DNA from: Protonemura montana
Lineage: Eukaryota > Arthropoda > Insecta > Plecoptera > Nemouridae
Assembly: GCA_947568835.1 (NCBI GenBank)
Contig: OX387607.1
Location: forward strand, 2,356,001 to 2,420,000
Reading direction: 5' to 3'
Length of the DNA stretch: 64,000 nt
Positions within the stretch are counted from its first letter, which is position 1. Every line of letters starts with the position of its first letter. The position numbers and the translations under genes were made by a program. Below, piece after piece: positions 2,679 to 27,934 of this stretch. The notes under the pieces were generated by a model, which was not told the origin of the DNA, did no database searches, and saw only the letters and a program-made list of their open reading frames with translations.

Positions 2679-4039
2679 ATGGTTCGAGTTCGAAACCTGC
2701 TGGTGATGTCACTGGCGTCAACGGTTTTTCTCGCCGTCGTCAAGGTAATTTGCTCCGAATATTTGATTGTATAGTTACATTTCGTTTGCAAAACAAACCT
2801 GTTGTTTATTTTAAGACGACCATTCCGTGACGAGACGATTTACCCTTTTAATCGAACTCGTGCGAACCAACTAATGGTAGACATTCGTGTCACGTATTTT
2901 CTCAAAGTTTTCTCTGTTTAACTTTTAAATTATTCTTATACACGAGCGTGAGCAACTTACCCTTTGCCCTGTCCGACCGAAACCCACCCCCTTATCAAAA
3001 ATATATGACTACAGAAAATTACAACAATAGAAAACCAAATAACGCACATAAACAATCTAAGAAAAGCTATAACTGTTCAACTTCCAAGCGATATTAAAGA
3101 GAATTAAATTTACTGCTGACAGGATTTGTAATTATTTCTCCTTGACAATTGGATTGTTTCTCTGATTTGTCGCAGGGCGAATACACGCAGGAGCCACCCT
3201 GCTTGAAAACAAGGGTGCTCCAGTCGTCTCCTCAAGTGCCCAAAACAAAGTGTGCAGCCTGCGAGAAGGAACTTGGCCACGGCCAGAAAGAAAACTACGT
3301 CTTAGTGCCAATCAACGATGAATCAAACTACAATCTGCCGCAAAAATCAGAAAACCGACCGTCAGGCTACGCTTTAGCTTCAAATTACCGCCAAACACCA
3401 AATCAGCAATCATCGAGTTACCAAAGTCCAACTCAGAAAACCAGAGATGGCCGCGGCCAACAACTGTCAAACACAGTGCCACAATGTAACTCAATATCAA
3501 ACTGTCAATCACACTTTTACTTGGTGCAAAGCTCCACGCAAGTCATCAATCATATCGAGCAACCAAGTAGTCACCAATCACACAGCTACCTTCAAGTTCC
3601 TCGGAGTGGTCATACAAATGTACCAACTTTGTCTTACAAGCCTAAGGTTACCAGTGATTCAAGACCAAGCTACAAGGCGAAGAGTGTACAAGCGAATGCG
3701 GTAACCCCTTTACATCATCTAGCTGCTAATAAAAATGAGCGTCGACCCAGCTTTTACAAGGCAGTTGAAAAGACGGGTGAACCAAAGTACCAGCCTGGTA
3801 GATTAGAGGACCGCACAAAGCCAAAAGTTTCAGTTTATAACTGGGTTTTATCGCCGAGAGAAACGAAAAAAAGCTACGCCGGGAAAACTCTGTTTGAAGG
3901 AATGAAATCAGATGAGAAAAAGTTGAGTCACGGAAAAGTGCCGGCGAAACAGAGTTTAGAAATAAGTTGTAGAAAATGTCAGAAAAGTGTTTACAGTAAA
4001 CCAAGTAAAGACAATTATAACTCTCGTGGTCAATATTGA
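2679..4039 (+). CDS. Secreted Ser/Gln/Tyr-rich protein with two CxxC motifs (309 aa)
   Basis: Exon 1 is 2679-2744 (22 codons, signal peptide ending AVVK) and exon 2 is 3176-4039; donor AAG|GTAATT, acceptor TCGCAG|GGC, phase 0. The mature protein begins GEYTQEPPC and is polar, rich in Ser, Gln, Tyr, Asn and Lys with many SY/SYQ and YK steps and no hydrophobic segment. Cysteines are concentrated at the ends: a CxxC near residue 48 (KCAACEK) and another near the C terminus (CRKCQK). Two such pairs flanking a disordered body suggest cross-linking or metal binding, which is inference. An AATAAA at 4149-4154 follows the stop. The family is unrecognised, but the 66-nt first exon equals that of four other genes here. 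Confidence 0.75.
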
Positions 4040-4154
4040 CAACGTTTATTAAGTGTGTGATTTCATTTTGTATTCACAAATACTGATTTTTATTGACCTT
4101 TTTTTATTTATTTTTCAGCCTTTTTTTGCACCTAAGTTTTGTTTTATCAATAAA

Positions 4155-4944
4155 AATTTTAAGAATTACTGAAGTCTTCAATTGAAATTTCGACGATTAT
4201 CGTGAAAAGCTGCAGAGTTTTCCGGTATGACCGCAAAGTCTGTTTTTCACTGTGGAGTTTTCATGCAGAATAAAATCCAATATGAAAAGCTGCACACTTG
4301 AAAAAGTCAAGTGAATACTATTTCCATACAATCCCAGTTCCAGGTATCCTATGAACACAATGCTCGACACGGCTTGTTTAGCATGTTTTTAATTATTTTT
4401 TAGAGTTCATAGAATGTAGAGTACACTTTGCACTTGATCCTAAAGAGGTGCTACCATTATAACACGGTACCGAGCGAGCTAGATATTCTGCTGCCGATAG
4501 AAAAGCTGCCAAGCAAAGCTGAGTTTTCACAACGTCAGGCCTGCACCGGAAAATGAACCGACACCGAGAAACTTTTCTCATTCACATTCAGTTCATTTCA
4601 CGCGAATATTCTATTCGAGCAGCAGCTGGTGTTGACTCTTGACATGACGCTATGTATGTCACATTCATTATGCAGTATTTCAGAGTGGATATATATGTTT
4701 ATAAGAGCTGTCAAAAGTGTTCTTATCAGATTCTTAAAAGGTTGAAAAGGTAAATCATTAAATGCCAGCCAAATTGTTTTCAGCATATAGGGTACTGGCA
4801 CTTGAAGGCAGCTGGCATTGGAAAATGTTCATATTATTGTCTATGGCTGAATTAATTTAAGATTCTCTTCTAAATTGGCAACAAAAATGTTACTGTTGCA
4901 AGTTTTCTTTATTTTTCGGATCGTAGCTTCGGTACTTTCCTCTT
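4155..4944. other. Intergenic, no gene seen
   Basis: AT-rich DNA between the poly(A) signal of the preceding gene and the 19-bp array. Short open frames here have no signal peptide, splice context or compositional bias. Confidence 0.5.
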
Positions 4945-7614
4945 GCCCAGTACGTTAAACATTACCTAGCGTGTTGCCCATTGCATTGCCCCTAGCCTAG
5001 TCCATTACTGTAAGCCCAGTTCATTACTGCTAGCCCAGTTCATTACTGCAAGCCCAGTTCATTACTGCTAGCCCAGTTCATTACTGCTAGCCCAGTTCAT
5101 TACTGCTAGCCCAGTTCATTACTGCTAGCCCAGTTCATTACTGCTAGCCCAGTTCATTACTGCTAGCCCAGTTCATTACTGCTAGCCCAGTTCATTACTG
5201 CTAGCACAGTTCATTACTGCTAGCCCAGTTCATTACTGCTAGCCCAGTTCATTACTGCTAGCCCAGTTCATTACTGCTAGCCCAGTTCATTACTGCTAGC
5301 ACAGTTCATTACTGCTAGCCCAGTTCATTACTGCTAGCCCAGTCCATTACTGCTAGCCCAGTTCATTACTGCTAGCCCAGTTCATTACTGCTAGCCCAGT
5401 TCATTACTGCTAGCCCAGTTCATTACTGCTAGCCCAGTTCATTACTGCAAGCCCAGTTCATTACTGCTAGCCCAGTTCATTACTGCTAGCCCAGTTCATT
5501 ACTGCTAGCCCAGTTCATTACTGCTAGCCCAGTTCATTACTGCTAGCCCAGTTCATTACTGCAAGCCCAGTTCATTACTGCTAGCCCAGTTCATTACTGC
5601 TAGCCCAGTTCATTACTGCTAGCCCAGTTCATTACTGCTAGCCCAGTTCATTACTGCTAGCCCAGTTCATTACTGCTAGCCCAGTTCATTACTGCTAGCC
5701 CAGTTCATTACTGCTAGCCCAGTTCATTACTGCTAGCCCAGTTCATTACTGCTAGCCCAGTTCATTACTGCTAGCCCAGTTCATTACTGCTAGCCCAGTT
5801 CATTACTGCTAGCCCAGTTCATTACTGCTAGCCCAGTTCATTACTGCTAGCCCAGTTCATTACTGCTAGCCCAGTTCATTACTGCTAGCCCAGTTCATTA
5901 CTGCTAGCCTAGTTCATTACTGTAAGCCCAGTTAATTACTGCAAGCCCAGTTCATTACTGCTAGCCCAGTTCATTACTGCTAGCCCAGTTCATTACTGCT
6001 AGCCCAGTTCATTACTGCTAGCCCAGTTCATTACTGCAAGCCCAGTTCATTACTGCAAGCCCAGTTCATTACTGCTAGCCCAGTTCATTACTGCAAGCCC
6101 AGTTCATTACTGCAAGCCCAGTTCATTACTGCTAGCCCAGTTCATTACTGCAAGCCCAGTTCATTACTGCTAGCCCAGTTCATTACTGCTAGCCCAGTTC
6201 ATTACTGCTAGCCCAGTTCATTACTGCTAGCCCAGTTCATTACTGCTAGCCCAGTTCATTACTGCTAGCCCAGTTCATTACTGCTAGCCCAGTTCATTAC
6301 TGCTAGCCCAGTTCATTACTGCTAGCCCAGTTCATTACTGCTAGCCCAGTTCATTACTGCAAGCCCAGTTCATTACTGCAAGCCCAGTTCATTACTGCTA
6401 GCCCAGTTCATTACTGCTAGCCCAGTTCATTACTGCTAGCCCAGTTCATTACTGCTAGCCCAGTTCATTACTGCAAGCCCAGTTCATTACTGCTAGCCCA
6501 GTTCATTACTGCTAGCCCAGTTCATTACTGTAAGCCCAGTTCATTACTGCTAGCCCAGTTCATTACTGCTAGCCCAGTTCATTACTGCTAGCCCAGTTCA
6601 TTACTGCTAGCCCAGTTCATTACTGCTAGCCCAGTTCATTACTGCTAGCCCAGTTCATTACTGCTAGCCCAGTTCATTACTGCTAGCCCAGTTCATTACT
6701 GCAAGCCCAGTTCATTACTGCTAGCACAGTACACTGTCCCTAGCCCAGTTCATTACTGCTAGCACAGTTCATTACTGCTAGCCCAGTTCATTACTGCTAG
6801 CCCAGTTCATTACTGCTAGCACAGTACACTGTCCCTAGCCCAGTTCATTACTGCTAGCACAGTTCATTACTGCTAGCCCAGTTCATTACTGCTAGCCCAG
6901 TTCATTACTGCTAGCCCAGTTCATTACTGCTAGCCCAGTTCATTACTGCTAGCCCAGTTCATTACTGCTAGCCCAGTTCATTACTGCTAGCCCAGTTCAT
7001 TACTGCTAGCCCAGTTCATTACTGCTAGCCCAGTTCATTACTGCTAGCCCAGTTCATTACTGCTAGCCCAGTTCATTACTGCAAGCCCAGTTCATTACTG
7101 CTAGCCCAGTTCATTACTGCAAGCCCAGTTCATTACTGCTAGCCCAGTTCATTACTGCTAGCCCAGTTCATTACTGCTAGCCCAGTTCATTACTGCTAGC
7201 CCAGTTCATTACTGCTAGCCCAGTTCATTACTGCAAGCCCAGTTCATTACTGCTAGCCCAGTTCATTACTGCTAGCCCAGTTCATTACTGCTAGCACAGT
7301 TCATTACTGCTAGCCCAGTTCATTACTGCTAGCCCAGTTCATTACTGCTAGCCCAGTTCATTACTGCAAGCCCAGTTCATTACTGCTAGCCCAGTTCATT
7401 ACTGCAAGCCCAGTTCATTACTGCTAGCCCAGTTCATTACTGCAAGCCCAGTTCATTACTGCTAGCCCAGTTCATTACTGCTAGCCCAGTTCATTACTGC
7501 AAGCCCAGTTCATTACTGCTAGCCCAGTTCATTACTGCTAGCACAGTACATTGTCCCTAGCCCAGTGCAATGTCCCTAGCCCAGTGCAATGCCCCTAGCC
7601 CAGTGCAATGCCCC
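4945..7614. repeat. 19-bp tandem satellite array, about 140 copies
   Basis: The unit is TAGCCCAGTTCATTACTGC, repeated almost without indels over 2.6 kb. The commonest variants are a T-to-A change giving GCAAGCCC, and AGCACAGT. Both edges are degenerate (CAGTGCAATGCCCCTAGC near 7560-7612). A five-unit block containing CAGTACACTGTCCCTAGC occurs twice about 95 bp apart (near 6720 and 6820), a small higher-order repeat. The array ends about 190 bp before the next gene's start codon. Confidence 0.97.
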
Positions 7615-7800
7615 CCGTCAAGTTTTAGTGAAAGACAAATATTTTTGTTTACCAAAAGTTTGCGTGTAAACTGAACGCATAAAGAATGTGTTGCTCTCAC
7701 CACAACACTGAGATCACCACATAAACAGGGAGTCAGGTGATAAGAGCAGGTGACCTGGAAGCCAGTCCGACATTGTCTGTTGGTCTTCGGCAAGCTCAAG

Positions 7801-10800
7801 ATGGCACATTCAGGGAAAGTCTTGCCTTTCTTGGCCGCTTCTTTCTTCACGTTCGTTGTCGTGCAGGTAAGCACTTGCACATCTCTACATCATATCATTT
7901 GCAATAAGGTTAGATTTTTTAGTATCTGAAACTTTAGGTCAACTTTCCTGGAGTGTCTTTCAATACCAATTCAATCTTTGTTCAATGAAGACTATAAACG
8001 GAATCATAAAATATTTCAGTTTGGCTTGGTCGAGACTTGGCTTAGATACAATGATTCGGGGAACATTTAGTTTTTTTAAAAACTAAAGTACAGATCTTTT
8101 TCTGCTAATACTCCTCGTCAATTCTAGAGATAATATTTTGTAGCAATGATGTTTGTCTAAGTCTTCCTTGCGAAGTTTAGATTCTTAGCTTTTAAACTAA
8201 ATTTTCAGTGCAGTTTCCTTGGACACGCACATCTCTTCTCTGTTTCTTGGGGTGGAATGAAGCATAGATTTCGGGATATTTGTTCAATAAGAACGTGTAT
8301 TAACTACCTAGTCGAGCATAACAAGATTAAGGTAGCATAACTTTTCAATAAACTTGCAAAAAATTTACGTATAACTTGCTCAGCGTTCGGTAAAACGTAT
8401 CGACAGACACCGTGCAATGCAGATTTACAGATTGCCTTACATTCATCTTTACAAAACTCGTGATTTTCAATGAAAATCTCCACTTCGACTTTAGATTTCC
8501 ATCTTAATATCAATGAAGTCTATAATACCAACGTTCTAATCCTGTCTCATCCAGGCCACTTACTGCAAGGGTCCCAGAGAGTCCTCGACCGCCAAGTACG
8601 CAGCCCCCCTGCATCTACCTGAACTCCCATACCTTCCCAGGGCCCCCAAGAAACACGCCGTCTACGTCAACCAAATCGAGAACAACTACTACGGACGTCA
8701 CCTGACTCCCGTCGACTTTCTTTCTGGTCTTCGAAAGCTCGGGGGTGAGTCTGGAGAATCCGTCGAGCAAGGATACGGGAACTACCACGACTACACAACA
8801 TCGGACTATGAAACAACTTACAAACCAGACTACACCACAAGCGAAGGAGGAACAGAAACTACACAAGACCCGGGAACCACTGACGAGTCAGGAACGACGC
8901 ATCAAAATACTGACAATACAGAAGCAACGCAAGATGCAGGGACAACTCCTGGAGATTCAGAAACCACTTCGGCAGATTCAGAAACCACTTCGGCAGATTC
9001 AGGGACAGCGACTTCAGAAGCCAGCGGAACAACAACTCAAAGTGAAACTTCTGATTCTGCAACAACAGCAACTCCAGCGGGGTCTGAAACAACGTCTGAA
9101 TCGACAACATCTGCAACGGGAGAGGGAGGAAATCGCAACAACAGAGGTCTCCGTTTTAGTCAACAGAGTCAAAGAAACGTCGGACAAATGCAATTCCACA
9201 AACACCAGCCGAGGTCCATTGAGGGGCGAGGAAGACCCGGTCCTTCAGCTACGGAGCGAAGGGTTGTTTATCCTGTTCAACAGTACATAGGTAACACTGT
9301 GGCTAGGCCAAACAGGAATATCTACCAACAGAGAAATAATCTTGCTGGTGCAAGCCGCAGTTTGAATCCTATACAATCGAATCGAAACGTCAACTATGAG
9401 CGACCGAACAGAAATATCGCTCCAAAACAATCAAGCAAAAATGTGAACCCCATGCGAGAATACAGGAATACCGCTCCTAGTAAACACATCAACACATCTC
9501 CTGCTAGACTCGTCAGGAACTCCGCTCCGATTTTATCAAGAGACAAAACTGACCGTCCAATGAACAGGAATTTCATTCCGTTTCGTCAGCAGCGTAATGT
9601 GGTAGCAGTCGAAACTGCTGACGTTCGTCCAGGAAAAATTGCTCAAAACCGGTTAAGCGAAAATGTTAAACCCGCTCGACAATACAGAAATACCGTACCT
9701 AGCAACGAGCACGACAGAGCGGCTCCTTTAAGAACCATACGGAATCCCACCCCAATTCTGAAACCAAACTCTAGCCAGACATTGACCAAGCTTTTCAGCC
9801 CACAACAATCAACAAGAAATATAAGCCCACCCAGAACGGCAGTCGTTCCTCAAAAGCTGCCATATCGAAATATCAACCCCTTAAACAGTAAGCCGACCGT
9901 CAAAAGAGAAAATAAACACGCGCCATCAAAGTCAACAGATTCCGACTTCCTTGACATCGACCGCGACGAGTACATGCGGATACTGACGACGCTGCTAAAA
10001 GAGGAACCAAAGAGCCCCGAGGCGAGCGCAAAGCGTCGTCGCTCCGTGGAGGCGTTGTTGAACGTCCTGGACCAATATTTCCCAAGACGGGACGGTGCCC
10101 CGGCGATCATGACAACCACAGAGCAGCTGGCCTCGTGTCTAACCAACCTGAACAAACAGTTCGAAGCATGGCTCGCTCTGCTCGCACCTGAGCTGTCAGG
10201 TACCACGACGCCATCACCCGACGGTCTAACCGGAATTCTGATTAAAGACAAGGCAGACTTCCAGAAGCTCTACGAGTTGTTCCAGAAGACCCTTAACGCC
10301 TCTGATGGACCAGAGCGGATGCAAGCCGAAAAAAGGGTGTCAGCCATGGGGTCCATTATCAGGCTGGCTACACGTCTTCTGCAAAGAAAGCAAAAGGAAT
10401 TAAATGACCTCGGTAGGCCGAGCCCTGACGTCAGGCGTCGGAACAAAAATATTCTCGATCATTTGAAAGCTATTATAAATATCGCCAATGAGTATCTAGC
10501 AGCTGAAGAGCGAGATCGGCGGAGTCGCCAGGCGAGCCTATTCGGCGTTCCTCAGACAAGCGTTGACGGTGGAGGCGGCACTTGGCTCTTCGGCAACTCT
10601 CCCGACTTCACGCCGTCCATCGAAAACATCCTGAAAACAGCCGAAACTATTTTGGGCAGCGATCCTAGATTGGTCGGCTTTGAGAACATATTGGATAATG
10701 TCTGGAACCTCTTCAACTTGATCCGGGAGCAAGAGAGCAACGGTCCGATCCCTGTGGTGGGGGCCACCAGGTGGGGGACCGGGGCGGTCGAGACAGACGT

Positions 10801-11065
10801 CGGCCGGCAAAGGGAGATCACAATCACCGTCTCCAGAAACAGGGGCCGTGACCAACGGATAACAATCGACGAGCTGATCAGACTCTTGAACCGAGGACGC
10901 GGTATCAGAGTCCGTTTCAATAACGGTCGCCGTCAAGGAAGTCGTGAAGAAGGACGCTTTGACGAAACTGAACTTGGAGGCGACTACCTCGTGTACTATG
11001 ACGACCCCTTTTTGCCTCCAGACCTGACTTCAGCTAACACGACGACCACGACCACGCCCAGATAG
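7801..11065 (+). CDS. Large secreted protein: Thr-rich, Arg-Asn repeats, helical C-terminal domain (858 aa)
   Basis: Exon 1 is 7801-7866 (22 codons, signal peptide ending VVVQ) and exon 2 is 8555-11065; CAG|GTAAGC and CCAG|GCC, phase 0. The mature protein starts ATYCKGPRES. Order of parts: a short conserved block (VYVNQIENNYYG); a mucin-like Thr/Ser/Glu region (about 100-215); a long basic region with spaced RNxxP-like motifs (RNIAP, KNVNP, RNTAP, RNSAP); then a helix-rich region (about 490-740) with LDQYFPRRD and FTPSIENILKTAETIL; and a Thr-rich C terminus. Dibasic and tetrabasic sites could be processed. The next gene shares the RN repeats and both helical blocks, so the two are tandem paralogues. 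AATAAA lies at 11373-11378. No named family was recognised. Confidence 0.82.
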
Positions 11066-12076: not shown

Positions 12077-15064
12077 ATGTTGTTTAGTAAGAGAGTTCTA
12101 GTTTTGATGGCTGCTTTCTGTTCGGTAACTGCAGTGGTGCAGGTAAGATTTTGCCCGGGAAATTGTGACCGTTTTAGAAGCTCGTGTCCAGAACGGCATG
12201 TTTATGAAAGGGAAATTAAGCAGGCAGACAAGGAGGCGGCCGTTTTCGTTAGACTGTAGAACTATCCGAGCAATTCGGGATATAGCGGAAGACTTGAGAT
12301 CGAAACAAGGACCGATCCATTGACCTGGCAGGTCGAGGGCGCTAACTCATTGCTGTGGAAAAATTGATTTGCAAAAAAAACAGTCCCCTTCATCGCAATT
12401 ATAGTTTCCTATCATTTTCAATACTGTTTTCTGCCTTACAATTTAAAAGTAATCTCAGAAAGTTCCTACCAATACTTTCTAATTTTTTCTCTTGATAAGG
12501 AATGTATAATTCCTGGCTAATGACTTTTGTTTCAGTTTCCAAACGTCAGAGATTCAATTCCTCAACAGATTATGTGCGCTTACAAAATGCACATCAAGTC
12601 CAGCTACTCTGACTTCGACAAAATGCAGAGTCAATGAACTTAATACGCATACGAAATTAACTTAACCTCCATTGACTCTGGCTGAAAGTACAGAGTCGAT
12701 TGACTTTTCACGGGCCGACAGAATGCGCAATTAATCTAAAGACTCTGCCTTAGCAAAATCAGAGTCAATATATATTATGCGCCGCGAAATTGTAATATTT
12801 AACACATTGTAACAGTGAAATAATTTGCAGTGTAGTGGCCGTGAAGTGGTATTCTTCCAAATTAAATTGAAATCTTATCTGAATTTTCTGTTTAACAAAT
12901 CTGGTTTGAATTGAATCTGTTTTATTAATTTAATTTATTAATTTAAATCTGGTTTGTTTTGCTCTTTGCAACTGCTTCAACCACCACCAATACGAACCTA
13001 CTGTTATCCACAATGAGACTTAATTTGCTGACGATCGAGGCAAATATTGAAAAATTACTATTCTATTTTCAGGCCACGTGTTCCAAGGATGAATTCAGGA
13101 CCACGAGGGACCTAGGAATGTGTTCCAGCCAACAATGCCAAGCAAACGACAATCAAGCCAGAATATATGCCCATTCGCCACGAGAAGCTCCTTCAAAGTC
13201 TGTAGAGAGAAATAGTTATCCCTCGCAACAAAACAGAAACCGTAATCCTGTAAAAGCAAACAGGTACACTGCACCCCAACAACAGTCCAATAACCCAGCC
13301 CGACATCAGAGACAAACATGTCGCTCACATGTAAATAAGGAGGTAAACATGTATAATGTCCCACGTCCGGGCAGAAATGTCAGAGCTCCATTGAACTGCA
13401 GAAACATCCGCGAAACAGCGCGTAGTCCCGTTGTCAACCATGTCCACGTCGACGCCCCACCCAGCCTCGCCAACGTCGTCAAGTTGCTGATAAAGGCTGT
13501 GGACGTGAGTCCCGCCGACGCCGAGGCAGGATCGCGACGTCGCCGCTACGTGGAAGTGCTGATGAACGCGCTCGACCAATACTTCCCGCGCCGTGACGTC
13601 GACCCGGATATCAATGTCGGGCTAAGTACGATCATCGAGTTTCTAGATGGCTTTTCTAGAGCTAGACAAGCAACAGCCGCAACCACTGAAAGCTCAGTGC
13701 CTACTGGTATTTTTGACGGTGCTGGAGATGCAGTGACCTCTCCCATGCCGCAAGAAAACCAAGATCTAGAATCGTTGACCCCCAGTAGTTTCACGAAGGA
13801 GATCCCGATTGAGGGACGCGTCGCCAGACAGTCGCGAAGATTTAAGAACCGCAACAGGATAGGTCACCGTCGTGGCAAACGAAGTGTTGACATGTCACGG
13901 TCAGCTGACGCGTTTGACAGTTCAACTCGCCACGCCGCGAGACGTGGCGGTGGAAATACGAACCAAGGTGTCAATCGACAGCCACGGAATACCTGTTGCT
14001 TTCAATCGCACGACAATGGCTGTCTTGAGCGAAATCAGAGAAATTTAAGCCCGTCGGGACAGCGAAGAAACATGGCCGCAGTTCCTAGCAGGAGAAACGT
14101 TAGTCCCGAAAAGCCTGTTAAAAGAAATGTTGCTCCTGTTCAAAAAAATGTAAAATGCAATTTCAAGCGAAATGTCAATAATTTGAATGAAATGCGTGAG
14201 AGCAGAGATGTAAATTATGATCAGCCTAAGAAGAAGACTAGCCACCGAGTCGACCGACAAGCGACGACAAGTCCCGAGCCTTCCTACAAGCTCGGAGATC
14301 CTCGGCTGACTCTGAGGATGTTCATGGTGAAGCTGCTGAAGATTAGTGAAACGCGGGCAGCCAACGGGCAGCCGCCCTTGCTCTCGCCAAGGGACAAGAC
14401 GCAAGTGCAGACGTGTCTTGCCTGGCAGAACGCAAGTCCGCAGGAGATCCTTGAATGCGTCAACGCACCGTACCTCCGCAAGAAGACAGAACTGACGGAA
14501 CAGGACGAGTTTCAACCTCTAGTCTTTGGTCGGCTGCCAAAATTTGTTGAAATTTTTCAAAATTTCGCGACGTTGATGAAAAACGCCGGTCGATCTGTGC
14601 GAATGTCGGAGGGAATTGATGTGAATGATAGCTTCGTCGGCAATGGCAGTGACGTGAGGCCGACTTTTGAAAGTGTTTTGAAGATCGCAAGTAAATTACT
14701 CGACATTGACCCGAATGGCAAGGAAATTGAGACGACCGTTAAAAACATTTTCAAATTGTTCAATCTAGTTGTGCGACAGGTACAGGTTGGAAGGGACGAT
14801 GAAAATCATATCGACATGACAGCGACATTGAAGGAATCGACACGATCGCAACTGGACGTAGCAGGACTGTCAGAAGAAACGAGGCAATCGGATGTAACAC
14901 CGGACTCTCCGCAGCATCTGGAAGAGTTGCCCGAGGTTGTGACTTTAGAAGCACCGAGAGCAGAAGGAACGACTCGTGCAGATTTCAATCCTCCGCAGCA
15001 AATGCCGCCGTTTGACTTCTGGTGGTGGGCCAGGCCGACTTTCTGGCTCAGTTTAGATCTTTGA
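12077..15064 (+). CDS. Secreted Arg-Asn-repeat/helical protein, paralogue of the upstream gene (685 aa)
   Basis: Exon 1 is 12077-12142 (22 codons, signal peptide ending TAVVQ) and exon 2 is 13073-15064; CAG|GTAAGA and TTTCAG|GCC, phase 0. An in-frame ATG at 12056 would add seven residues; 12077 is preferred because it gives the standard 66-nt exon. Mature start ATCSKDE matches ATYCKG of the upstream gene. RN-type repeats (RNVRAP, RNLSP, RNVSP, RNVAP) occur in two blocks. The helical block with LDQYFPRRD (about 177-200) is separated from the block VRPTFESVLKIASKLL (about 550-605) by the second RN block and a GKRS-type basic site. This looks like a reshuffled version of its neighbour. No perfect AATAAA follows; AAATAATA is near 15105. 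Confidence 0.82.
12590..12790. repeat. Intronic cluster of inverted AGAGTCAAT motifs
   Basis: Within the intron of the gene at 12077. AGAGTCAATG and CATTGACTCT alternate several times over about 190 bp and could fold back. It may be a degraded MITE; no second copy was found in the window. Confidence 0.3.
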
Positions 15065-16567: not shown

Positions 16568-17515
16568 GGTGGGTTTAAACACCGGTTCTCGTGAAATCAC
16601 CGAAGTTGAGCAACACTGCGCTGGATCAGGTATTGGATGGGTGATCATTATACACGTGACCAGTTCTGTTCGGGAGAGAGGTTGGAGGGATGAAAGTTAA
16701 GCAACACTGCGCTGGGTCAGGTATTGGACGGGTGACCATCATACACATGACCAGTTCTGTTCGGGAGAGAGGTTGGAGGGATGAAAGTTAAGCAACACTG
16801 CGCTGGATCAGGTATTGGATGGGTGACCATCATACAAATGGCCAGTTCTGTTCGGGAGTGAGGTTGGAGGGATGAAAGTTAAGCAACACTGCGCTGGATC
16901 AGGTATTGGATGGGTGACCATCATACAAATGGCCAGTTCTGTTCGGGAGTGAGGTTGGAGGGATGAAAGTTAAGCAACACTGCGCTGGATCAGGTATTGG
17001 ATGGGTGACCATCATACAAATGGCCAGTTCTGTTCGGGAGTGAGGTTGGAGGGATGAAAGTTAAGCAACACTGCGCTGGATCAGGTATTGGATGGGTGAT
17101 CATTATACACATGACCAGTTCTGTTCGGGAGAGAGGTTGGAGGGATGAAAGTTAAGCAACACTGCGCTGAGTCAGGTATTGGATGGGTGACCATCATACA
17201 CATGACCAGTTCTGTTCGGGAGAGAGGTTGGAGGGATGAAAGTTATTACAGCAACTTCACTCGCCTTGCTTATCAACCTCTCGACAGCATGGATTTGTGG
17301 AGGAATCCTGTTGTTCGCGTTGTACCGTCCTTCGGAAGGGACGTTAAGGCGTTGGTCCCCTTGGTGCTCTTCGACAAGAGTAGGCTACGTGTCGATACTG
17401 GTTTTCCCATCCTCCCTTCTAGGCTAGGTTAGGATCATCATCCTAATTATTTTTACTCATCCACCAAAAAGAGCTTCAATGCCCGTTATCAAAACAATGC
17501 GTCGTTAAACACCAT
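16568..17515 (+). mobile_element. 5S-rRNA-derived SINE with seven tandem 91-bp head units
   Basis: The head CGGTTCTCGTGAAATCACCG then AAGTTGAGCA resembles arthropod 5S rRNA from about position 28 through its internal promoter (boxes A and C; GGATGGGTGACC). The motif AGCAACACTG recurs at 16609, 16700, 16791, 16882, 16973, 17064 and 17155, exactly 91 bp apart. A unique body follows from about 17246 (ACCGTCCTTCGGAAGG, GTGCTCTTCGACA). Three consecutive units share private variants (ACAAATGGCCAG, GGGAGTGAGG), which shows local duplication within this copy. Confidence 0.88.
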
Positions 17516-18018: not shown

Positions 18019-20643
18019 ATGTGTCACGGAAGAAGTTGGTCGACGGCGTTGCTGGCGTCAGTAATTGTCTTGTCATGTGCACAGGTATGTAGTTGTTTGT
18101 AGCATGCTTTGCTCGAAACATCTTCCTTAGATTGACTCGATTTACTCAAATCTACACGAAATGCAGTAATTATTTTAAGAAAATTCTTAAAATAGTCTAC
18201 GTGGGTGTACGTCGTAGATCAGAGAGATGCTCAGGAGAAGTGAAAAATTTTTCTTCCGTTTTACAGTTTTTAGAAAAACTATTTGAACTGGGTTTTGAAT
18301 GCTAAGTAAAGGGCTACTAAATTTCCCGACGTTTCGTAACATATACTAGTTACTTCTTCAAGGGTAAGAGCAGTCCTTGAAAAACCTTTAACCCTTGAAG
18401 AAGTAACTAGTATATGTTACGAAATTTCGGGAAATTTAGTTGTCCTTTACTAAGCATTCAAACCCCATTTCAAATAGTTTTTGTTAAAACTAGTGCTGAG
18501 GATAAATCAAGTAGACATGAGTCTAAAAACCATCATGGTTTAACAGTTTCTTTACCCCATTCACTTGGTTTTTTTTAATTTTTAAGAAACAGCGTAACTT
18601 GCTTATAGATTGGGCACCACATCAATATTATTTGCAGGTCTATGATATAAATCAAAACTTTGGCAATCGCAAATCAACGGAAAACGAGATAAATGAAATT
18701 ACCCTCATGGCCAGTTAATACTAATAAGCCGATAGTTTAACTAGACTTTTCACCTTCTGTCATGCGATATTTAACCTTAATTTATAAAACAATGTGATTT
18801 TCTTATAGTCATGTCAAGATACAGTTAGATGGCCATTTTCTAACCAATAACGCACATTCTAAAATGTTGTTCTTCACTTTTCCAGGCATTTCTCTTCCGG
18901 CCTCTGCCCATCCTCGACCCTCTACATCTCCTCGGCAAGACCGAGGCAATACCGCAGAAACGCTCCGTCTACATCCACGAGATCAAAAACAACTTTTTTC
19001 CAGAAGTCGACGACGCCGTCAAGCCAGGCTACCCAAAATTAAGTCACCCCAAACTTGACTACCCCAAACCAGGATACCCAAAACACGCATATACAATGCC
19101 AAGCAACCCAATCCATCGCTACCCAATTCCTGACATTCCAAAGCTCGGTTATTCAAAGCCAGACGAGTCCTACCCTACCAACATTACGCCCGGCTGTCCT
19201 AGCCGAGAACACACCACCCCTGAGCCAACGACCGATAATCCATCGACAGGGCATTTACTAATCGCAAACATCCGAGATCTGATTCAGGACATTTTAAAAC
19301 AGGAAAGGGGTGACAAATCAGGACAGTACGCTCGGTCGCTCGACCCGGTGATTCCTCCCACTCACCTACCGAAGACCAACCACTACAACCGGGGACACGC
19401 TCATTTCCTGGACCATGGCGCGCCACTCAAAGGTCCATACAATCAAGGCAGGAAGAACGAAGTCTACGAATTCGAAAACCATCGCCCATTAGTGTTCCCC
19501 CACGGTCTCCAGAGAACCAACCGCGAAAGTGATCCTCAGGTACCAGAAGAAAGCCCAACAACCCCGAGCAGCATCGATACCCAAAGCGCGACCCCAGAAG
19601 CCTCGGTCCATCGAGAGCCTCTGATACTTCCGGACATGGTCAGCAACCTCAATGCGTACCTGGGTCTGTTTACAGGGAGCGGCGTCTCGCCGGGTCCCGA
19701 AACTGAAGCGGCGTTTGAAAAAACGGTCATCGATATCGTCAAGGATGTGTTGGTGGTCTTGAAAGGCAGTCTGCAAGAGGTAACTACCACAACGCCCCTG
19801 CCAACCACTGAGGCGGAAACAGACGACACGGCGACGCAGCTGAAGAAGGCTCTGAGCGAGTTGGAAGTCTCGCTGGCGGCTGCCTCAAAAAGTATTTTAG
19901 GGTTGACAGAAATCGAGTCAGCCTCGCCCAGTCCCTTAAGTGATCTAAGAGATATAGGCACGAATATCAATGAAATTCCCTCTCAAATGGCAAAACTTCT
20001 GGAACAATTCGACGAATTGATGCCGAAATCGACGCCGGAACCGGTGGTCATTGAGCATAAAGCCTCGCCGATCGCATTCGTCAAAGACGGGCAAGTTATT
20101 TCTGACTCCAACGCATTGCTGGCGGACACACTTAAATGGCCGGACATTCTCAACGGATTTCCCATTGTCGTCGAATCGAACCGTCTGACGCGTCACAATT
20201 ATGCTCAGGATCAAAACGAGTTCCCACAGGATGAGGACACCGAGGACACCGAGGACACCGAGGAAGAGTATCCTGTTCCTGCTCGTCCAGGCTACGCTAT
20301 CGCACCGAGGAGACCGCAAGGTGTGAAGAGATACGAGCGACCACAAAGCTGTCCTAGAAACATTGATGCACAGAGACCACGGTACCAGCAGCAGCGACCA
20401 CAGCAGCGACCACAACAACGACCTCAAGAGCGTCACTCAGTGCAGGATCAGTACCGGCAGGTACAGAACAAGCACCGGCAGGTTGTGTATAGGAGACCAG
20501 TACCGGTACCGTATCCTGTCGAAGAGGAAGAGGAAGAAGAGGAAGACGAGGAAGATGATGAAGATGACGGATATAATCAGGAAGCGTATGAGCTTCCTGA
20601 AAATGAGGGGCAATGCTTTCAGGGGAATTCTGATGGATATTAG
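18019..20643 (+). CDS. Secreted Pro/Tyr/Lys and acidic low-complexity protein (607 aa)
   Basis: Exon 1 is 18019-18084 (22 codons, signal peptide ending VLSCAQ) and exon 2 is 18886-20643; CAG|GTATGT and TTCCAG|GCA, phase 0. Near the mature N terminus VYIHEIKNNFF corresponds to VYVNQIENNYY in the gene at 7801. Then come short YPKP/HPKL steps (about 68-114), a Pro/Thr-rich linker, a helix-rich centre (about 268-394) with Thr/Pro spacers, an acidic EDTEDTEDTEEE run (about 468-484), RPQQ repeats (about 523-538), a Glu/Asp run and a C terminus with one Cys (NEGQCFQ). AATAAA is at 20678-20683. No known domain, but clearly part of the local family by exon 1 and the N-terminal motif. Confidence 0.8.
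18262..18540. repeat. Palindromic MITE copy in an intron
   Basis: The left arm (ACTAAATTTCCCGACGTTTC, ACTAGTTACTTCTTCAAGG) is repeated inverted in the right arm (CCTTGAAGAAGTAACTAGTA). The outer end reads CTAAAAACCATCATGG. Related copies lie at 2010, 35915, 45285 and 48253. Confidence 0.8.
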
Positions 20644-21244: not shown

Positions 21245-21867
21245 TTGCAAGCAATTTAAATACGTTTTAATCTACGTGCAATAGTAATATTTTTTGTTGT
21301 GCTAATTGCTAAAGGAATACATCAAATTTAATATACGAGGACCATTTTTAATACAAAATTAAAGACGCATGAATTGTTTTTTTTTAATTAATGTTGTCTT
21401 TGGTGACGTAAAAACTACTTTAAATTCAATTCATTCCTTTGCAACCACACCTAGAAACGAGCTACTGTCATTTGTCAATCATATCTTCGCTGTCATCAGC
21501 AGGAATAAATATCCGATAAATATTTGCACAACAAAACTGGTAGACATCGTGAAAAATGTCAGAGACAGCAAATCAGCAACAGCAGAGACAGCAGAGACAG
21601 CAGAGACAGCAGAAACGTACTTGTTTGCTGTATTTCTATGTCGGTAATACACATTACAAAATGCAACCAACATTTATGCGTTCCAAACAATCTCAAAGAA
21701 ATCGCAATGCCATGCGTTAGTATAATTTTTTGGTTTCATCCTGAATTTCGTTTTCATAATCCTCGAAGCGAAGTTTTATTGTAAGAGCACCAGCAGGCGT
21801 ATCTTCCAGAGTGACTTGTAAACCAATTTTCGTCAAACAAAGACTTTTAACTCTGCATCGCATCTTA
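21245..21867. other. Intergenic, no gene seen
   Basis: Contains a short AGACAGCAG repeat near 21590-21620 and otherwise no recognisable feature. Confidence 0.4.
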
Positions 21868-22380
21868 ACAACCCACAAGATGCTGCCTCCAACACAATGC
21901 ACCGAACACAACAACCCACAAGATGCTGTCCCCAACACAATGCACCGAACACAACAACCCACAAGATGCTGTCCCCAACACAATGCACCGAACACAACAA
22001 CCCACAAGATGCTGTCCCCAACACAATGCACCGAACACAACAACCCACAAGATGCTGTCCCCAACACAATGCACCGAACACAACAACCCACAAGATGCTG
22101 CCTCCAACACAATGCACCGAACACAACAACCCACAAGATGCTGCCTCCAACACAATGCACCGAACACAACAACCCACAAGATGCTGTCCCCAACACAATG
22201 CACCGAACACAACAACCCACAAGATGCTGCCCCCAACACAATGCACCGAACACAACAACCCACAAGATGCTGCCTCCAACACAATGCACCGAACACAACA
22301 ACCCACAAGATGCTGTCCCTAACACAATGCACCGAACACAACAACCCACAAGATGCTGCCCCCAACACAATGCACCGAAC
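21868..22380. repeat. 43-bp tandem minisatellite, about 12 copies
   Basis: Unit CAACCCACAAGATGCTGYCY then CCAACACAATGCACCGAACA with a short connector; copies differ mainly at the CTGTCCCC/CTGCCTCC position. The unit has no stop codon in several frames, and 43 is not a multiple of 3, so long open frames appear on both strands. None has an independent gene signal. Confidence 0.95.
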
Positions 22381-22830: not shown

Positions 22831-23689
22831 TGGTAACATTCAAAGGTACAGAAAACAGACAGCGTTACTAATCGGTCAGTTTAGAGGCAGGAAAGCGAAT
22901 ACCAGATACTTTCGAACAAAAGGTGAAATCGATTGCATTAAATGCCATACCGACTTTAATAATAATAATAATAAATGCTTTAACCCTCCCAGTACTTGAA
23001 TCTAAGCTTCCAAATCCAAGCAACTGGTAATATAAAACTGAGGTTATTATTATTATGTGTGTAAATTTAATAGGTACATTAATTTCCTTTAGTAAAATAT
23101 ATTCTGTAAGGGTGATTTGAATCAATCTTTTGGCGTCATGCCAAACAACATCAAACTAGATTGTACAGACAATAACGGTCAATCTAAATAAAAGTCGACT
23201 TTTTACTGAATCACTTCAAATTTTAAAATTTAAAAAACCCATCAGTAATTTCACGTGAGTTTTTCAGCCAATGGGGTCCAACTTTGAAATTGTTTCGAGC
23301 ATACAATCGCTAGGTAGGTACAGGCAGTATTAGGCGACTATCTGATTTCGCAAAACGTGGTTTTTTACAATCATTTAATTAAATCTGTATCCGGCAGCAA
23401 CGTGCAGGTCCTGGGTTCAGTTCTATCTCAGCGTAGATGTTTGAAAAACAGCTTCTAGCAAAGTGGGTACATGCTGTAACGATCATTTTATTCGCGTGAA
23501 AAACTCTATGAAAACCCATGGAAACAAATGAAAGCCCATGCTGACCCATAAACACGTATTTAAACGCAAGAAAATTCATGGGAACAAATAAATTGCATAA
23601 AACCCTTCATAAAAATATGACAACCAGAAGAAAAAAAAGCATTGAAAATCTTGGAAAAGCGTGAAAAGTCATAAACATGCATGAAAACG
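22831..23689. other. Intergenic, no gene seen
   Basis: AT-rich DNA with short AAT/ATT microsatellites near 22955 and 23045 and repeated CATGAAAA-like steps near 23510-23690. Confidence 0.45.
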
Positions 23690-24730
23690 ATTGGTTGGTT
23701 GATGTTGGGTTTAACGACCTCCTTTTTGTCTATTTAATAGCCTATTATCTGTGTAAAATCCGGTGCCAGCAAGTAGCTTTCTCCTGTCGAAGATCACCAA
23801 GGGGACCACTGGCTTAACGTCCCTTCCGAAGGACGGTACAACGCGAACAACAGGATTCCTCCACAAATCCATGCTGTCGAGAGGTTGATAAGCGAGGTGA
23901 ATTAAGTTGCTGTACTAACTTTCATCCCTCCAACCTCTCTCCCGAACAGAACTGGTCATGTGTATGATGGTCACCCATCCAATACCTGACCCAGCGCAGT
24001 GTTGCTTAACTTTCATTCCTCCAACTTCTCTCCCGAATAGAACTGGCCATGTGTATGATGGTCACCCATCCAATACCTGACCCAGCGCAGTGTTGCTTAA
24101 CTTTCATCCCTCCAACGTCTCTCCCGAACAGAACTGGTCATGTGTATGATGGTCACCCATCCAATACCTGACCCAGCGCAGTGTTGCTTAACTTTCATTC
24201 CTCCAACCTCTCTCCCGAACAGAACTGGTCATGTGTATGATGGTCACCCATCCAATACCTGACTCAGCGCAGTGTTGCTTAACTTTCATCCCTCCAACCT
24301 CTCTCCCGAACAGAACTGGCCATGTGTATGATGGTCACCCATCCAATACCTGACTCAGCGCAGTGTTGCTTAACTTTCATCCCTCCAACCTCTCTCCCGA
24401 ACAGAACTGGCCATGTGTATGATGGTCACCCATCCAATACCTGACACAGCGCAGTGTTGCTTAACTTTCATCCCTCCAACCTCTCTCCCGAACAGAACTG
24501 GTCATGTGTATGATGGTCACTCATCCAATACCTGACCCAGCGCAGTGTTGCTTAACTTTCATCCCTCCAACCTCTCTCCCGGACAGAACTGGCCATGTGT
24601 ATGATGGTCACCCATCCAATACCAGACCCAGCGCAGTGTTGCTTAACTTCTGTGATCTTATAAATTTTAATCATTATATCATTGAATCTTATGAATCAAT
24701 TGGCGTGTTTCCAACACTCCAACACGCATG
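23690..24730 (-). mobile_element. 5S-derived SINE with eight tandem 91-bp units
   Basis: On the - strand the head array (about 24650-23925) precedes the body and tail (CTTCGGAAGG, GTTAAACCCAACATCAACC near the end). GCAGTGTTGCTT recurs eight times at 91-bp spacing. The head edge is interrupted after CTTCTGTGATC and resumes as GTTTCCAACAC near 24710. Confidence 0.87.
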
Positions 24731-25540
24731 AAAAATAATGGAAAGTTATTCCAGGATTTTAGCAAGAGCTTTGATTGACAGTTGTTCTATTTAATCAGCT
24801 TTTATTTGTGTAGCAGAAACCCCGAGGCGCTGAGGATTTTTACAGAAAACTCTCGAAATATAAATCCAGTGCCGAGTTTTTGAATTCACTTTGAAAAATC
24901 GGGTTTTCAACCTTATTTTCACGAAATTATACTGCAGGAACAATGACTGCACATATACAATTATAAAAGCTCAAACTCTACTTTAAAATATGCAGAACAC
25001 AAATATAAAAGTGATTTTCATTACAAACAGAACGATTACTTGGAAGAGCACAAACAAGGATTTTAATGAAAAGTATGTGTAGTGAAAATTACAGTGACGC
25101 AGGCGAGGGGATTTTTTCCCAATTATCCATTTAAAAATGTTGGACATTTGGCGTAAAGCGTCAACGTAAATCAAGATTTAGCCAAGAAAGTTGACAAGTT
25201 TTTTAGAAAGCGTAGGTAAAATTATTTAGTTTGTTGCGGAGTAGGTCCTAATAGAAGAACACAACTTAAACATCCTGAATATTTGATGATCATCTTGATA
25301 TAATTGAGTAAAGACAAGGAAAATTTCAGAAGATTTTCGATTTGAAATTAAATTGTACTATTAAAATTGTATGCCTAGGACCTGAGATCAAGTGAAATTA
25401 TGAAGTAAAAACATTGATAACTATTATGTACACACGCGTAAATATGTAGGTACTGCAAAAATGTGGTAATGCAAAACACAAGTAACGTATTCAATTGCGC
25501 TCGTTGCAAATCGCCCCGTCAGCAGAAAGGTCGGGGCAGC
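24731..25540. other. Intergenic, no gene seen
   Basis: AT-rich upstream region of the gene at 25610; no repeat or exon identified. Confidence 0.4.
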
Positions 25541-25547
25541 TATAAAT
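25541..25547 (+). promoter_or_regulatory. TATA box of the Tyr/Gln/Gly-rich gene
   Basis: TATAAAT, 69 nt before the start codon, immediately downstream of a GC-rich stretch (CGCCCCGTCAGC and GGTCGGGGCAGC). Confidence 0.65.
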
Positions 25548-25609
25548 TGGTAGGTGTTGTCCGATAAAGTCACAGTCTTCTGCCACAATTGTCTTGTGAC
25601 TTCCTAGAC

Positions 25610-27934
25610 ATGGCGATCTCAAGGAACCTGCTGACCACCGTCTTCACCTTCGCGGCATGCCTCGCCGTGGCTCAGGTAAGAACTTCACACTCATTTAAAA
25701 ATATTACTTCAAAACGATTTTAATTCTATCTGCCCTCAAAGAACAAGCCTTATCGTTGCAAACTTTTTCAATTACAAATTTAATTACTTGGTTTTTTCCC
25801 GCTGTTCCCCGATGCTTTCCAGTCAGTTTAATTAGAATATTCGATCAGATAATTTAAAATTCTAAGGCACTGTCTAAGTCTGTATGATTTGATCGGTTTT
25901 TTATGGCAGTTGGAACCACGATTCGTTCTCAACTTGCTTGCAAATAAAATCGATAACACAGTCAGGTCGACAATAATTCTAACTCACACATTTGAAACTG
26001 ATCATCTTTATTTTCACCCGCACTAGCACTTTTTGTTTCTCGCTCGCACAATTAGCTTTCCACGCATGAATTCAGTGTGTTTTTAATTTGTCACCTGTTT
26101 TGTTTGCACAAATGATAACTCGCCTAGCAGCCAGACAAGTGCATTCAATTTTAAACTGTCTGCTTTCAAACTCGCCATTGATGTGGATGCAATCACTTTA
26201 ATTTCGTATAAAATCATATCCTCGTTTCTTTGTAACTTTCAGCTTTGACAAAGATTATTTACTTATATTCTTCGTTGAACCCAATTTTTTGTTACCTTCA
26301 ATGCACGCTCGCCTTTGCATATAAAGGCACCGATATTATTTTCCCCCAAAAAACACCTCTAACCCCTGCTTGTTTTTCGCCCGTCGTCACAGTCGCTGTG
26401 CCTCTACAACGCTAACTCACCGGGGAGTCGCACCAAATCGTACCAGCCTTCCTGCCAGGAGAGCGTGCAGCCCACCTACGAGGAACCCAGCGGCTACGAG
26501 CAGCCACAGCAACACGAAGTCGCCACGTACGGTGAGGTCGAAGAGAGCGGATATGGTGCTGCCCCTGCGTACGAACCTCAGCAATCGCCTTCGTACGAGC
26601 CAGAGTCTTCGTACGGGAGTGCCCCCGCTAGTTTATATCAGTCGGAACCAGAATCATCTTACCAGCCGAAGAAATACCAGAAATCTAGACCAAGCAAGCC
26701 AACATATGGTGGAAGACAGTCGTCTTATGGAGGAAGCCAGTCGACTTACGCCGAAGAAGTGGAGTCCAGATACGAACAAGATCAGCCACAAGGATATGGT
26801 GAACAACAACAAGGATACGAGCAAGAAGAACAACAGGAATATAGCCAAGATGAACAGCAAGGATATGGACAACAATCACATGGATATGAACAACAGTCGC
26901 AAGGATATGGACAAGAACAACAAGCAGAATATGAGCAGGAACAACAAGGATATGAGCAGGAACAACAAGGATATGGACAGGAACAACAAGGATATGAGCA
27001 GGAACAACAAGGATATGGTCAAGAACAGCAAGGATACGAGTCAGAGGACCAAGAATACGGTCAACAAGAACAAGGATACGGTGAAGTAGAACAACAACAA
27101 GGCTATGAACAAGAAGAAGTATCATCTTACGGCCAAGCACCCGAGCCGTCTTACGGAGGCCAAGCCCCCGCGAAATACCACCAACAAAAGAAACAGTACA
27201 AGTCCAAGACCCACAAGCAGTCGTCATACGGTGGTAGTTCAAGCGGTGGACATCAAAGCCAATCGGGACAGACTTACGAGTCCGCTAAATCACCACTCTA
27301 CCACCAAGTCAGGAAGTCGAAGCAATCGAAGAAGCCAGCGTACGGAGGAGGAGCTCCCGCCTTGTCGTACGGTCAACAAGAACAAGGTCACGAGTCATTG
27401 TACGGCGCACCACCACCACCTGCATCCTACGGTCAGTCCAAGCAATACAAGAGCAAACCAAAGAAGACTTCTTACGGAGCACCAGCACCCAGCAAATCGA
27501 GTCACCAATCCAGTCAACCGTCATACGAATCTCACCCTGAACCATCGTACGCACCCGCCCCTGCGCCTTCTTATGGGCAGGCACAAAAATACGGAAAGGC
27601 ACCCAAAGTGAAGAAGATATCTTATAAGGTTACCGCTCCGGCGTCGTACGGGTCCGAGCCGTCTTATGGAGTCGTTGCTCCTGAGTCGTATGGCGCGTCC
27701 GAGCCATCGTACCAACAGGAGTCGTCGTACGGGTCCGCACCCGCGCCGGCGCCCAAATACAATGCCCCCAAGAAGTGCAGCAAAGCCGTGGCCAAGAAGC
27801 CTTCTTATGGGGGGTCTAGTGGAGGGTCGTCTTCAGGGGGTGGCTCTAGTTCGGGGTCGTCGTACGGACAAGAACAACAGCAGTACGAGCAGCAACTAAG
27901 TTATCACGCACAACAGCCATCTAGCGGCTATTAA
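25610..27934 (+). CDS. Secreted Tyr/Gln/Gly/Ser repeat protein (535 aa)
   Basis: Exon 1 is 25610-25675 (22 codons, signal peptide ending LAVAQ) and exon 2 is 26393-27934; CAG|GTAAGA and TCACAG|TCG, phase 0. After SLCLYNANSPG and a second Cys the protein is almost entirely repeats: about residues 155-265 are QQGYGQEQQGYEQ units (5-8 residues, Tyr every few positions), and the rest is PSYG/APSYG with KKxSYGG and Lys-rich steps, then a Ser/Gly run. A single Cys (KKCSKA) lies near the C terminus. The composition resembles disordered, Tyr-rich structural or adhesive proteins (resilin-like, prion-like); Tyr cross-linking is inference. AATAAA at 28063-28068. Confidence 0.85.

What the first reader, a model, noticed from the sequence alone, without database searches (positions are those of the whole stretch)
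2679..27934. Five neighbouring genes share a first coding exon of exactly 66 nt but encode unrelated-looking proteins
Exon 1 at 2679-2744, 7801-7866, 12077-12142, 18019-18084 and 25610-25675 is always 22 codons, always a signal peptide, always ends with Q or K at CAG/AAG, and always in phase 0. The bodies are Ser/Gln/Tyr with CxxC, Arg-Asn repeats plus helices (two genes), Pro/Tyr/Lys acidic, and Tyr/Gln/Gly repeats. The shared exon implies one duplicated gene family with extremely fast or replaced second exons, or repeated capture of new bodies by a signal exon.
Basis: partly seen in the sequence, partly recalled or inferred. Interest (0 to 1): 0.85.

Follow-up and report, generated by a model that had tools for sequence, protein, structure and literature searches.

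The report
Five tandem secreted-protein genes, shared exon junction
Five neighbouring animal genes for secreted proteins all carry their signal peptide on a 66-nucleotide first exon, most likely because they are old duplicates of one gene whose main coding parts have changed almost beyond recognition.

Summary
The exon observation holds at the stated coordinates. Five head-to-tail genes (2679-27934, + strand) have a 66-nt first coding exon, phase 0, ending CAG/AAG before GT, then one long exon 2. "Unrelated bodies" is only partly true. G2 and G3 are paralogues (blastp E 8e-11). G2 and G4 share an N-terminal motif (0 of 500 shuffles as high; blastp E only 0.02-0.05). G1 and G5 match nothing convincingly.

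The phase-0 signal exon extends beyond the five: I read about 15 such candidate genes between 2 and 99 kb, first exons of 51 to 99 nt, one outside the array also 66 nt. The five share a finer detail, a permitted signal-peptidase site one residue into exon 2.

Exon-1 and promoter similarity within the five is only slightly above background, so capture of bodies by a mobile signal exon is not supported. Tandem duplication with fast-diverging bodies fits best; chance convergence on 66 nt is not excluded, above all for G1 and G5. Function is inferred: crosslinkable extracellular-matrix proteins. Close analogues are mosquito tweedledee/tweedledum, vertebrate EDC and SCPP clusters, and aphid bicycle genes.

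The parts
2679..2744 (+). G1 exon 1 (66 nt): MVRVRNLLVMSLASTVFLAVVK
3176..4039 (+). G1 exon 2, 287 aa, Ser/Lys/Gln-rich with CxxC near both ends
   Evidence: no Pfam match up to E 1; only itself found in the genome
7801..7866 (+). G2 exon 1 (66 nt): MAHSGKVLPFLAASFFTFVVVQ
8555..11065 (+). G2 exon 2, 836 aa: N-terminal VYVNQIENNYY motif, Thr/Ser-rich stretch, RN repeats, C-terminal region predicted helical at low confidence; paralogue of G3
12077..12142 (+). G3 exon 1 (66 nt): MLFSKRVLVLMAAFCSVTAVVQ
13073..15064 (+). G3 exon 2, 663 aa, RN repeats, 11 Cys; paralogue of G2
18019..18084 (+). G4 exon 1 (66 nt): MCHGRSWSTALLASVIVLSCAQ
18886..20643 (+). G4 exon 2, 585 aa, Pro/Tyr/Lys stretch, middle region, acidic tail; N-terminus resembles that of G2
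25610..25675 (+). G5 exon 1 (66 nt): MAISRNLLTTVFTFAACLAVAQ
26393..27934 (+). G5 exon 2, 513 aa, Gln/Ser/Gly/Tyr repeats. The acceptor could instead be 26459 (same frame)
2263..2319 (-). Neighbour gene A exon 1 (57 nt, or 51 from an inner ATG; phase 0), ATG-to-ATG gap of 359 bp to G1
137..1507 (-). Neighbour gene A exon 2, 456 aa, no Pfam match up to E 1, only itself found in the genome
33371..33427 (-). Neighbour apolipophorin-III gene, exon 1 (57 nt, or 45 from an inner ATG; phase 0)
   Evidence: body exons assigned by eye: 30579-30905 (Pfam ApoLp-III E 5.7e-14, above cut-off) and 32239-32586 (E 3.3e-4, below cut-off)
39343..39393 (-). Neighbour signal exon (51 nt, phase 0); body by eye at 38519-38794, with one weak Apolipoprotein match (E 0.012, below cut-off) among other weak ones
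42172..42228 (-). Neighbour signal exon (57 nt, phase 0); body by eye at about 40810-41289
46275..46334 (-). Neighbour signal exon (60 nt, phase 0); exon 2 not settled
49357..49455 (+). Neighbour signal exon (99 nt, or 93 from an inner ATG; phase 0), perhaps leading to the Asn/Tyr repeat exon at 51533-52063

Best explanation
The five genes are a tandem array that arose by duplication of one ancestral gene for a secreted protein. In that ancestor the signal peptide sat on a first exon of 22 codons and the intron lay one codon before a usable signal-peptidase site. The exon junction was kept because three things pin it: the signal peptide must work, the cleavage region must stay near it, and the splice site needs CAG/AAG before GT. 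The large second exons encode mostly low-complexity, repeat-rich bodies that tolerate almost any change, so they diverged fast. Each protein is probably secreted, cleaved near residue 23 and built into an extracellular material (eggshell, cuticle or glandular secretion), held by crosslinks through Tyr, Gln and Lys, with disulfides in the Cys-bearing ones. Shown: gene anatomy, G2-G3 homology, the G2-G4 motif. Inferred: common origin of G1 and G5 with the rest, cleavage position, secretion, disorder, crosslinking, tissue.
For: Five consecutive same-strand genes with 66-nt phase-0 signal exons, bracketed by minus-strand genes with 57-nt signal exons. Of 15 signal-exon genes that I picked between 2 and 99 kb, 6 have 66 nt and five of these six are this run; hand calculation: p about 0.002 for this placement, at most about 0.02 for any run of five. 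G2-G3 body homology: E 7.9e-11, z 8.7 even against shuffles that keep local composition. G2-G4 N-terminal motif: score 61 against 27.7 +/- 5.2, 0 of 500 shuffles as high, the only such pair of 15 tested. A permitted cleavage site (VKG, VQA, VQA, AQA, AQS) one residue after the intron is among the three best in 5 of 5, against 1 of 9 neighbours examined. Exon-1 peptides of the five resemble each other more than 1989 of 2002 five-gene subsets of 14 local signal exons (49357 left out). Mean exon-1 identity 27.9 of 66 exceeds codon shuffles (23.0 +/- 1.0; 24.9 +/- 1.0 with regions kept, p 0.0036). In whole-genome searches G2 and G3 match only themselves and each other, and G1, G4 and A only themselves (the tool scores only its best candidates).
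Against: G1 and G5 have no convincing body homology to the rest. G1-G5 scores 91 against 63.3 +/- 9.8 (p 0.015 before correction for 10 pairs); G4-G5 similarity vanishes when local composition is kept. G3-G4 shows nothing. G2-G4 reaches only E 0.02-0.05 in blastp, and their middle regions do not align (score 39 against 37.4 +/- 5.9). Exon-1 DNA and promoters are near background, as expected if duplication is old but equally if it never happened. In G3 and G5 the site at residue 23 is second-best in my crude scoring, not best. If G5 uses the acceptor at 26459, its residue 23 is Glu and that feature fails for G5. One unrelated-looking neighbour (98549) also has a 66-nt phase-0 signal exon.
Confidence: 0.62

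Rival explanations
1. Convergence and coincidence. Many secreted genes of this region carry a phase-0 signal-peptide exon because introns sit at CAG/AAG proto-splice sites near the cleavage region. Signal peptides have similar lengths, so several adjacent genes landed on 66 nt without one common ancestor. Only G2-G3 (and perhaps G4) are true paralogues.
For: About ten further candidate genes between 2 and 99 kb have phase-0 signal exons, among them an apolipophorin-III gene that is surely of other origin. One of them (98549) is also 66 nt. Promoters, introns and exon-1 DNA of the five are near background.
Against: Only 1 of 10 non-array genes in my list has 66 nt, so five in a row is unlikely. 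The five peptides are more alike than 1989 of 2002 subsets. Three of the five are linked by body sequence. The published trend in animal signal-peptide genes near the cleavage site is phase 1, not phase 0 (PMC1626468, passages).
Confidence: 0.26
2. Repeated capture: one signal exon with its promoter was copied in front of unrelated open frames, which became new secreted proteins.
For: G1, G4 and G5 bodies look unlike each other. A phase-0 exon carrying a nearly complete leader is a suitable shuffling module. 7 of 30 local comparisons of promoter, intron start and exon 1 fall under p 0.05, more than the 1.5 expected.
Against: Recent capture predicts plain exon-1 and promoter similarity. The best of those 30 comparisons is p 0.005, and exon-1 DNA identity is 22-33 of 66 per pair. 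G2-G3 bodies are clearly homologous, so at least that pair arose by duplication that included the body.
Confidence: 0.08

Closest known systems
tweedledee and tweedledum of Aedes aegypti (PMC10076016, passages read)
   Different: Two genes, not five, encoding 216 and 116 aa; proteins here are larger. G2 and G3 here are similar to each other. No expression data here. Relation by descent untested.
Epidermal differentiation complex (EDC) of amniotes (PMC4245816, passages read)
   Same: A cluster in which exon-intron organisation and position were used to find members, thought to have expanded by duplication, encoding structural proteins that are crosslinked (abstract start).
   Different: Simple EDC genes have a noncoding first exon and encode proteins of cornifying cells; here exon 1 codes a signal peptide.
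Vertebrate SCPP genes (PMC4373244, passages read)
   Same: Tandem expansion of secreted matrix proteins, signal peptide encoded by one early exon, a variable region on one large exon.
   Different: SCPP genes carry the leader on exon 2, and amelotin of mammals has nine exons with a noncoding first one; SxE motif on exon 2b; vertebrate family.
Aphid bicycle genes (PMC9168663, abstract, significance and section list read)
   Same: Rapidly evolving secreted-protein family whose homology is seen from gene structure rather than sequence.
   Different: That work used a classifier on many genes and species, with expression in salivary glands; here a single two-exon pattern in one genome.
Drosophila cuticle proteins with a phase-0 intron at position 5 (PMC1626468, passages read)
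   Same: Secreted structural proteins with a phase-0 intron early in the coding sequence.
   Different: Intron after about 4 codons there, after 22 here. No chitin-binding Pfam match here.

Membership tests
One tandem-duplicate gene family (the five genes) | Adjacent, same orientation, same exon number and phase | tested here: met
   five + strand genes, two predicted exons, 66 nt, phase 0
One tandem-duplicate gene family (the five genes) | Residual sequence homology between members | tested here: inconclusive
   Met for G2-G3 and, by shuffles, the G2-G4 N-terminus; not for G1 or G5
One tandem-duplicate gene family (the five genes) | Orthologues keep the same junction in related species | not testable with these tools
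   The genome has no relatives in the held set
tweedledee/tweedledum-type genes | Short first exon, longer second exon, signal peptide, disordered body, no mutual similarity | tested here: inconclusive
   Exon pattern and leaders met; disorder inferred from composition only; G2-G3 do have mutual similarity
tweedledee/tweedledum-type genes | Shared synteny with the mosquito locus and ovarian expression | not tested
   No mosquito genome searched, no expression data
Epidermal differentiation complex (simple EDC genes) | Noncoding first exon, whole coding region in exon 2 | tested here: not met
   The first coding exon encodes 22 residues in all five
SCPP family | Signal peptide on exon 2 after a noncoding exon 1 | not testable with these tools
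   No cDNA; nearest TATA-like words 47-69 nt before the ATG argue weakly against an upstream exon
CPR cuticle proteins | Chitin_bind_4 domain (Pfam name recalled) | tested here: not met
   No such match among Pfam hits up to E 1 for the five bodies
Aphid bicycle genes | Structural classifier and salivary-gland expression | not tested
   Classifier not run, no expression data

The most novel reading that the evidence does not exclude
The five genes are one corner of a roughly 97-kb 'matrix gene complex' in an unnamed arthropod: about 15 secreted-protein genes sharing a phase-0 leader exon against the published phase-1 trend, with bodies (Tyr/Gln, Arg-Asn, Asn-Tyr, Pro-Tyr-Lys, Thr-mucin) that turn over so fast that only the exon junction and position mark family membership, an arthropod counterpart of the EDC.
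Probability: 0.25. Interest if true: 0.6.

Novelty: new member of a known kind. Interest (0 to 1): 0.4.

Why it matters
If the array is one family, it is a clean case in which gene structure outlives sequence: three of five members are still linked by sequence and two only by their exon junction and position. Such arrays can calibrate how long an exon boundary survives after the coding sequence has lost its signal, and warn that 'orphan' secreted genes may be old duplicates rather than new genes. The phase-0 bias of the surrounding cluster, against the published phase-1 excess near signal-peptide cleavage sites, could be tested genome-wide with an ordinary annotation.

Tried and rejected
Species identification: mitochondrial contig of 15,885 bp, pancrustacean-type gene order (my reading), A+T 68.4%. 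The stonefly Nemurella pictetii was considered and rejected: chromosome 5 is 22.19 Mb and MT G+C 29.3% in PMC9086528 (first of two parts of the text read), against 20.95 Mb for contig 5 and 31.6% here. A text search for the assembly size gave one unrelated paper.

Structure: AlphaFold of the G4 middle region gave mean pLDDT 42.3 and of the G2 C-terminal region with G3 53.8, pTM 0.43, only helices assigned. I judged both too weak for a fold search and ran none. Pfam up to E 1 gave nothing above cut-off for the five bodies or gene A; the strongest below cut-off was DUF7018 in G2 (E 3.4e-4, 21.2 bits against 27.8). G2 had no PDB sequence match up to E 0.1; the other bodies were not sent.

In 2-100 kb, 20 of 25 scan rows are phase 0; in the other 226 kb, 3 of 16. 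Rows I dropped when naming 15 genes: alternative ATGs (2313, 2706, 33415, 49363), the two 77648 rows (weak, read in two phases), the phase-2 rows at 3049 (two), 46508 and 92675, and all 16 rows outside 2-100 kb, three of which are phase 0. The scan paired some exon 1s with an exon 2 that I think wrong (33427, 39393, 42228); I reassigned those by eye. Its splice weights, hydrophobicity cut and signal-peptidase scoring are recalled approximations.

Literature: a search for insect tandem arrays in such words found no paper; searches gave the analogues cited. No claim is made that this locus is unpublished.
Full report
SETTING. The window is G000:C5:2356001-2420000 of a 258.5-Mb animal genome in 34 contigs. 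Contig 34 is a 15,885-bp mitochondrial genome read with the invertebrate code, in what I read as the pancrustacean gene order. The species could not be named.

CHECK OF THE OBSERVATION. A scan for signal-peptide-like first exons (ATG, hydrophobic 8-mer, GT donor) followed by an acceptor and at least 80 open codons recovered all five reported exons with exactly 66 nt and phase 0. In 124 kb it gave 23 rows, 18 of them phase 0, against 0 rows in the reversed sequence and 20 rows in five block shuffles together (5, 10 and 5 in phases 0, 1 and 2). With a stricter donor and no demand on exon 2, 324 kb gave 21 rows, 15 of them phase 0, while ten shuffles gave 4 to 11 rows each, 18 of 76 in phase 0. 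Exon 1 ends AAG in G1 and CAG in G2 to G5. Introns are 431, 688, 930, 801 and 717 bases, so intron length is not shared. Each gene has a poly(A) word within 450 bp of its stop, and its nearest TATA-like word 47 to 69 nt before the ATG (in G2 to G4 these are variants such as GATAAG or AATAAG, so weak).

THE BODIES ARE NOT ALL UNRELATED. Blastp of the second exons gives G2-G3 matches at E 7.9e-11, 6.7e-7 and 2.5e-5, and the pair stands 8.7 standard deviations above shuffles that keep local composition. G2 and G4 share an N-terminal stretch, PLHL...KK/KR..VYV/I..I.NNYY/FF, score 61 against 27.7 +/- 5.2 (0 of 500 shuffles, the only one of 15 pairs so). Over whole bodies this pair is p 0.005, and in blastp only E 0.02 to 0.05. 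Other pairs are weak: G1-G5 p 0.015 uncorrected among 10 pairs; G4-G5 and G2-G5 vanish with local composition kept; G3-G4 none. Whole-genome searches, which score only their best candidates, found no further G2 or G3 relatives and no second copy of G1, G4 or A; G5 found three weak matches elsewhere (E 1.9e-4 to 3.1e-4), which I take for repeat likeness. Pfam found nothing above cut-off for these bodies.

THE DESIGN IS LOCAL BUT WIDER THAN FIVE GENES. In 324 kb around the locus, 20 of 25 scan rows between 2 and 100 kb are phase 0, against 3 of 16 in the remaining 226 kb. I read the former as 15 candidate genes with first exons of 57 (A), 66 x 5, 57, 51, 57, 60, 99, 54, 54, 51 and 66 nt; three of the non-array values shrink if an inner ATG is used. 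One neighbour is an apolipophorin-III gene (Pfam E 5.7e-14). Another, at 65.7-68.3 kb, is an Asp/Gly/Tyr/Gln-rich protein found once in the genome. So the phase-0 leader exon marks a neighbourhood of secreted proteins, while the run of 66 nt marks the array. By hand calculation from these 15, the five-gene run has p about 0.002, or at most about 0.02 for any run of five; this is suggestive and post hoc.

A FINER SHARED FEATURE. In 5 of 5 array genes a permitted cleavage site (small residue at -1, small or V at -3; the rule is recalled and the scoring crude) lies after residue 23, the first residue of exon 2. Among 9 neighbours examined (46334 was not), 1 has such a site at that offset among its three best (lower-ranked sites were not printed). 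It ranks first in G1, G2 and G4, second in G3 and G5. For G5 it depends on the acceptor at 26393, which has a CTAAC word upstream but a poor tract score (-0.19), against 1.07 for the alternative at 26459.

EXON 1 AND PROMOTER VERSUS BODY. Exon-1 pairs share 22 to 33 of 66 nt. Local alignments of 300 bp of promoter, 120 bp of intron start and exon 1 are mostly inside shuffles; 7 of 30 comparisons are under p 0.05 (2 promoter, 2 intron, 3 exon 1), best 0.005 for exon 1 of G2-G5, where 1.5 are expected. Mean exon-1 identity (27.9 of 66) exceeds codon shuffles (23.0 +/- 1.0, none of 5000 as high) and region-preserving ones (24.9 +/- 1.0, p 0.0036). Against 9 other local signal exons, the five are as alike or less than 63 of 2002 five-gene subsets in DNA and 13 of 2002 in protein, the five themselves counted. 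This is weak residual similarity, in line with old duplication, and no sign of recent capture of a signal exon.

MECHANISM. I commit to tandem duplication with retention of the leader exon and fast divergence of low-complexity bodies (0.62). The compositions (Gln 16.8, Ser 16.2, Tyr 11.7% in G5; Ser 13.2, Lys 10.1, Gln 8.4% in G1; Arg 10.3% with 11 Cys in G3) suggest proteins made to be crosslinked in an extracellular material. Furin-like words in G2 and G3 (RDRRSR, RRRRYV, RGKRSV) hint at proteolytic processing. Tissue and function are inference only.

COMPARISON. Nielsen and Wernersson (authors' names recalled; PMC1626468, passages) report an excess of phase-1 introns around codon 20 in animal signal-peptide genes and a phase-0 peak at position 5 in Drosophila, mostly cuticle proteins. 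The present junction is neither. The nearest published likeness I saw is tweedledee/tweedledum (PMC10076016, passages). Gene-structure homology has been used for bicycle genes (PMC9168663, abstract, significance and section list) and the EDC (PMC4245816, passages), and SCPP genes show a leader exon kept across diverged matrix proteins (PMC4373244, passages). The locus is therefore a new example of a known way of evolving; membership in any of those named families is not claimed.

Noticed in passing
16603-17245, 23916-24649, 29180-29698, about 43500-43760: 91-bp tandem repeats (the last array seen only by word match and eye) whose unit contains a 5S-rRNA-like word; likeness recalled. Two full 5S rRNA matches lie at 53344-53464 and 60195-60315 on the minus strand.
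   Followed up: partly
4992-7552: Minisatellite of 19 bp, about 135 copies, 96% matches, directly upstream of G2.
   Followed up: no
21867-22380: 43-bp tandem repeat, 12 copies, open in several frames but with no sign of being a gene.
   Followed up: no
30579-33427 and 38519-39393, minus strand: An apolipophorin-III gene (Pfam E 5.7e-14 for one exon) and a second small secreted protein with a weak Apolipoprotein match below cut-off, near each other.
   Followed up: partly
55829-56275 and 61649-62050, plus strand: Two exons that look fatty-acid-binding-protein-like; only the second was scanned and matches Pfam Lipocalin/FABP at E 5.8e-8.
   Followed up: no
Right flank, window coordinates about 92.9-99.4 kb (in the stretch joined from L011-L013 and L024 onward): Three tandem candidate secreted genes with Thr/Pro-rich mucin-like stretches, first exons 54, 51 and 66 nt, all phase 0.
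   Followed up: partly
L002 against L003: A stretch of contig 4 carries a near-identical copy (99.8% over 4,338 bases) of part of the mitochondrial genome: a recent nuclear insertion or an assembly artefact.
   Followed up: no
2320-2678: Gene A and G1 are head to head with 359 bp between their start codons, possibly sharing a promoter region.
   Followed up: no
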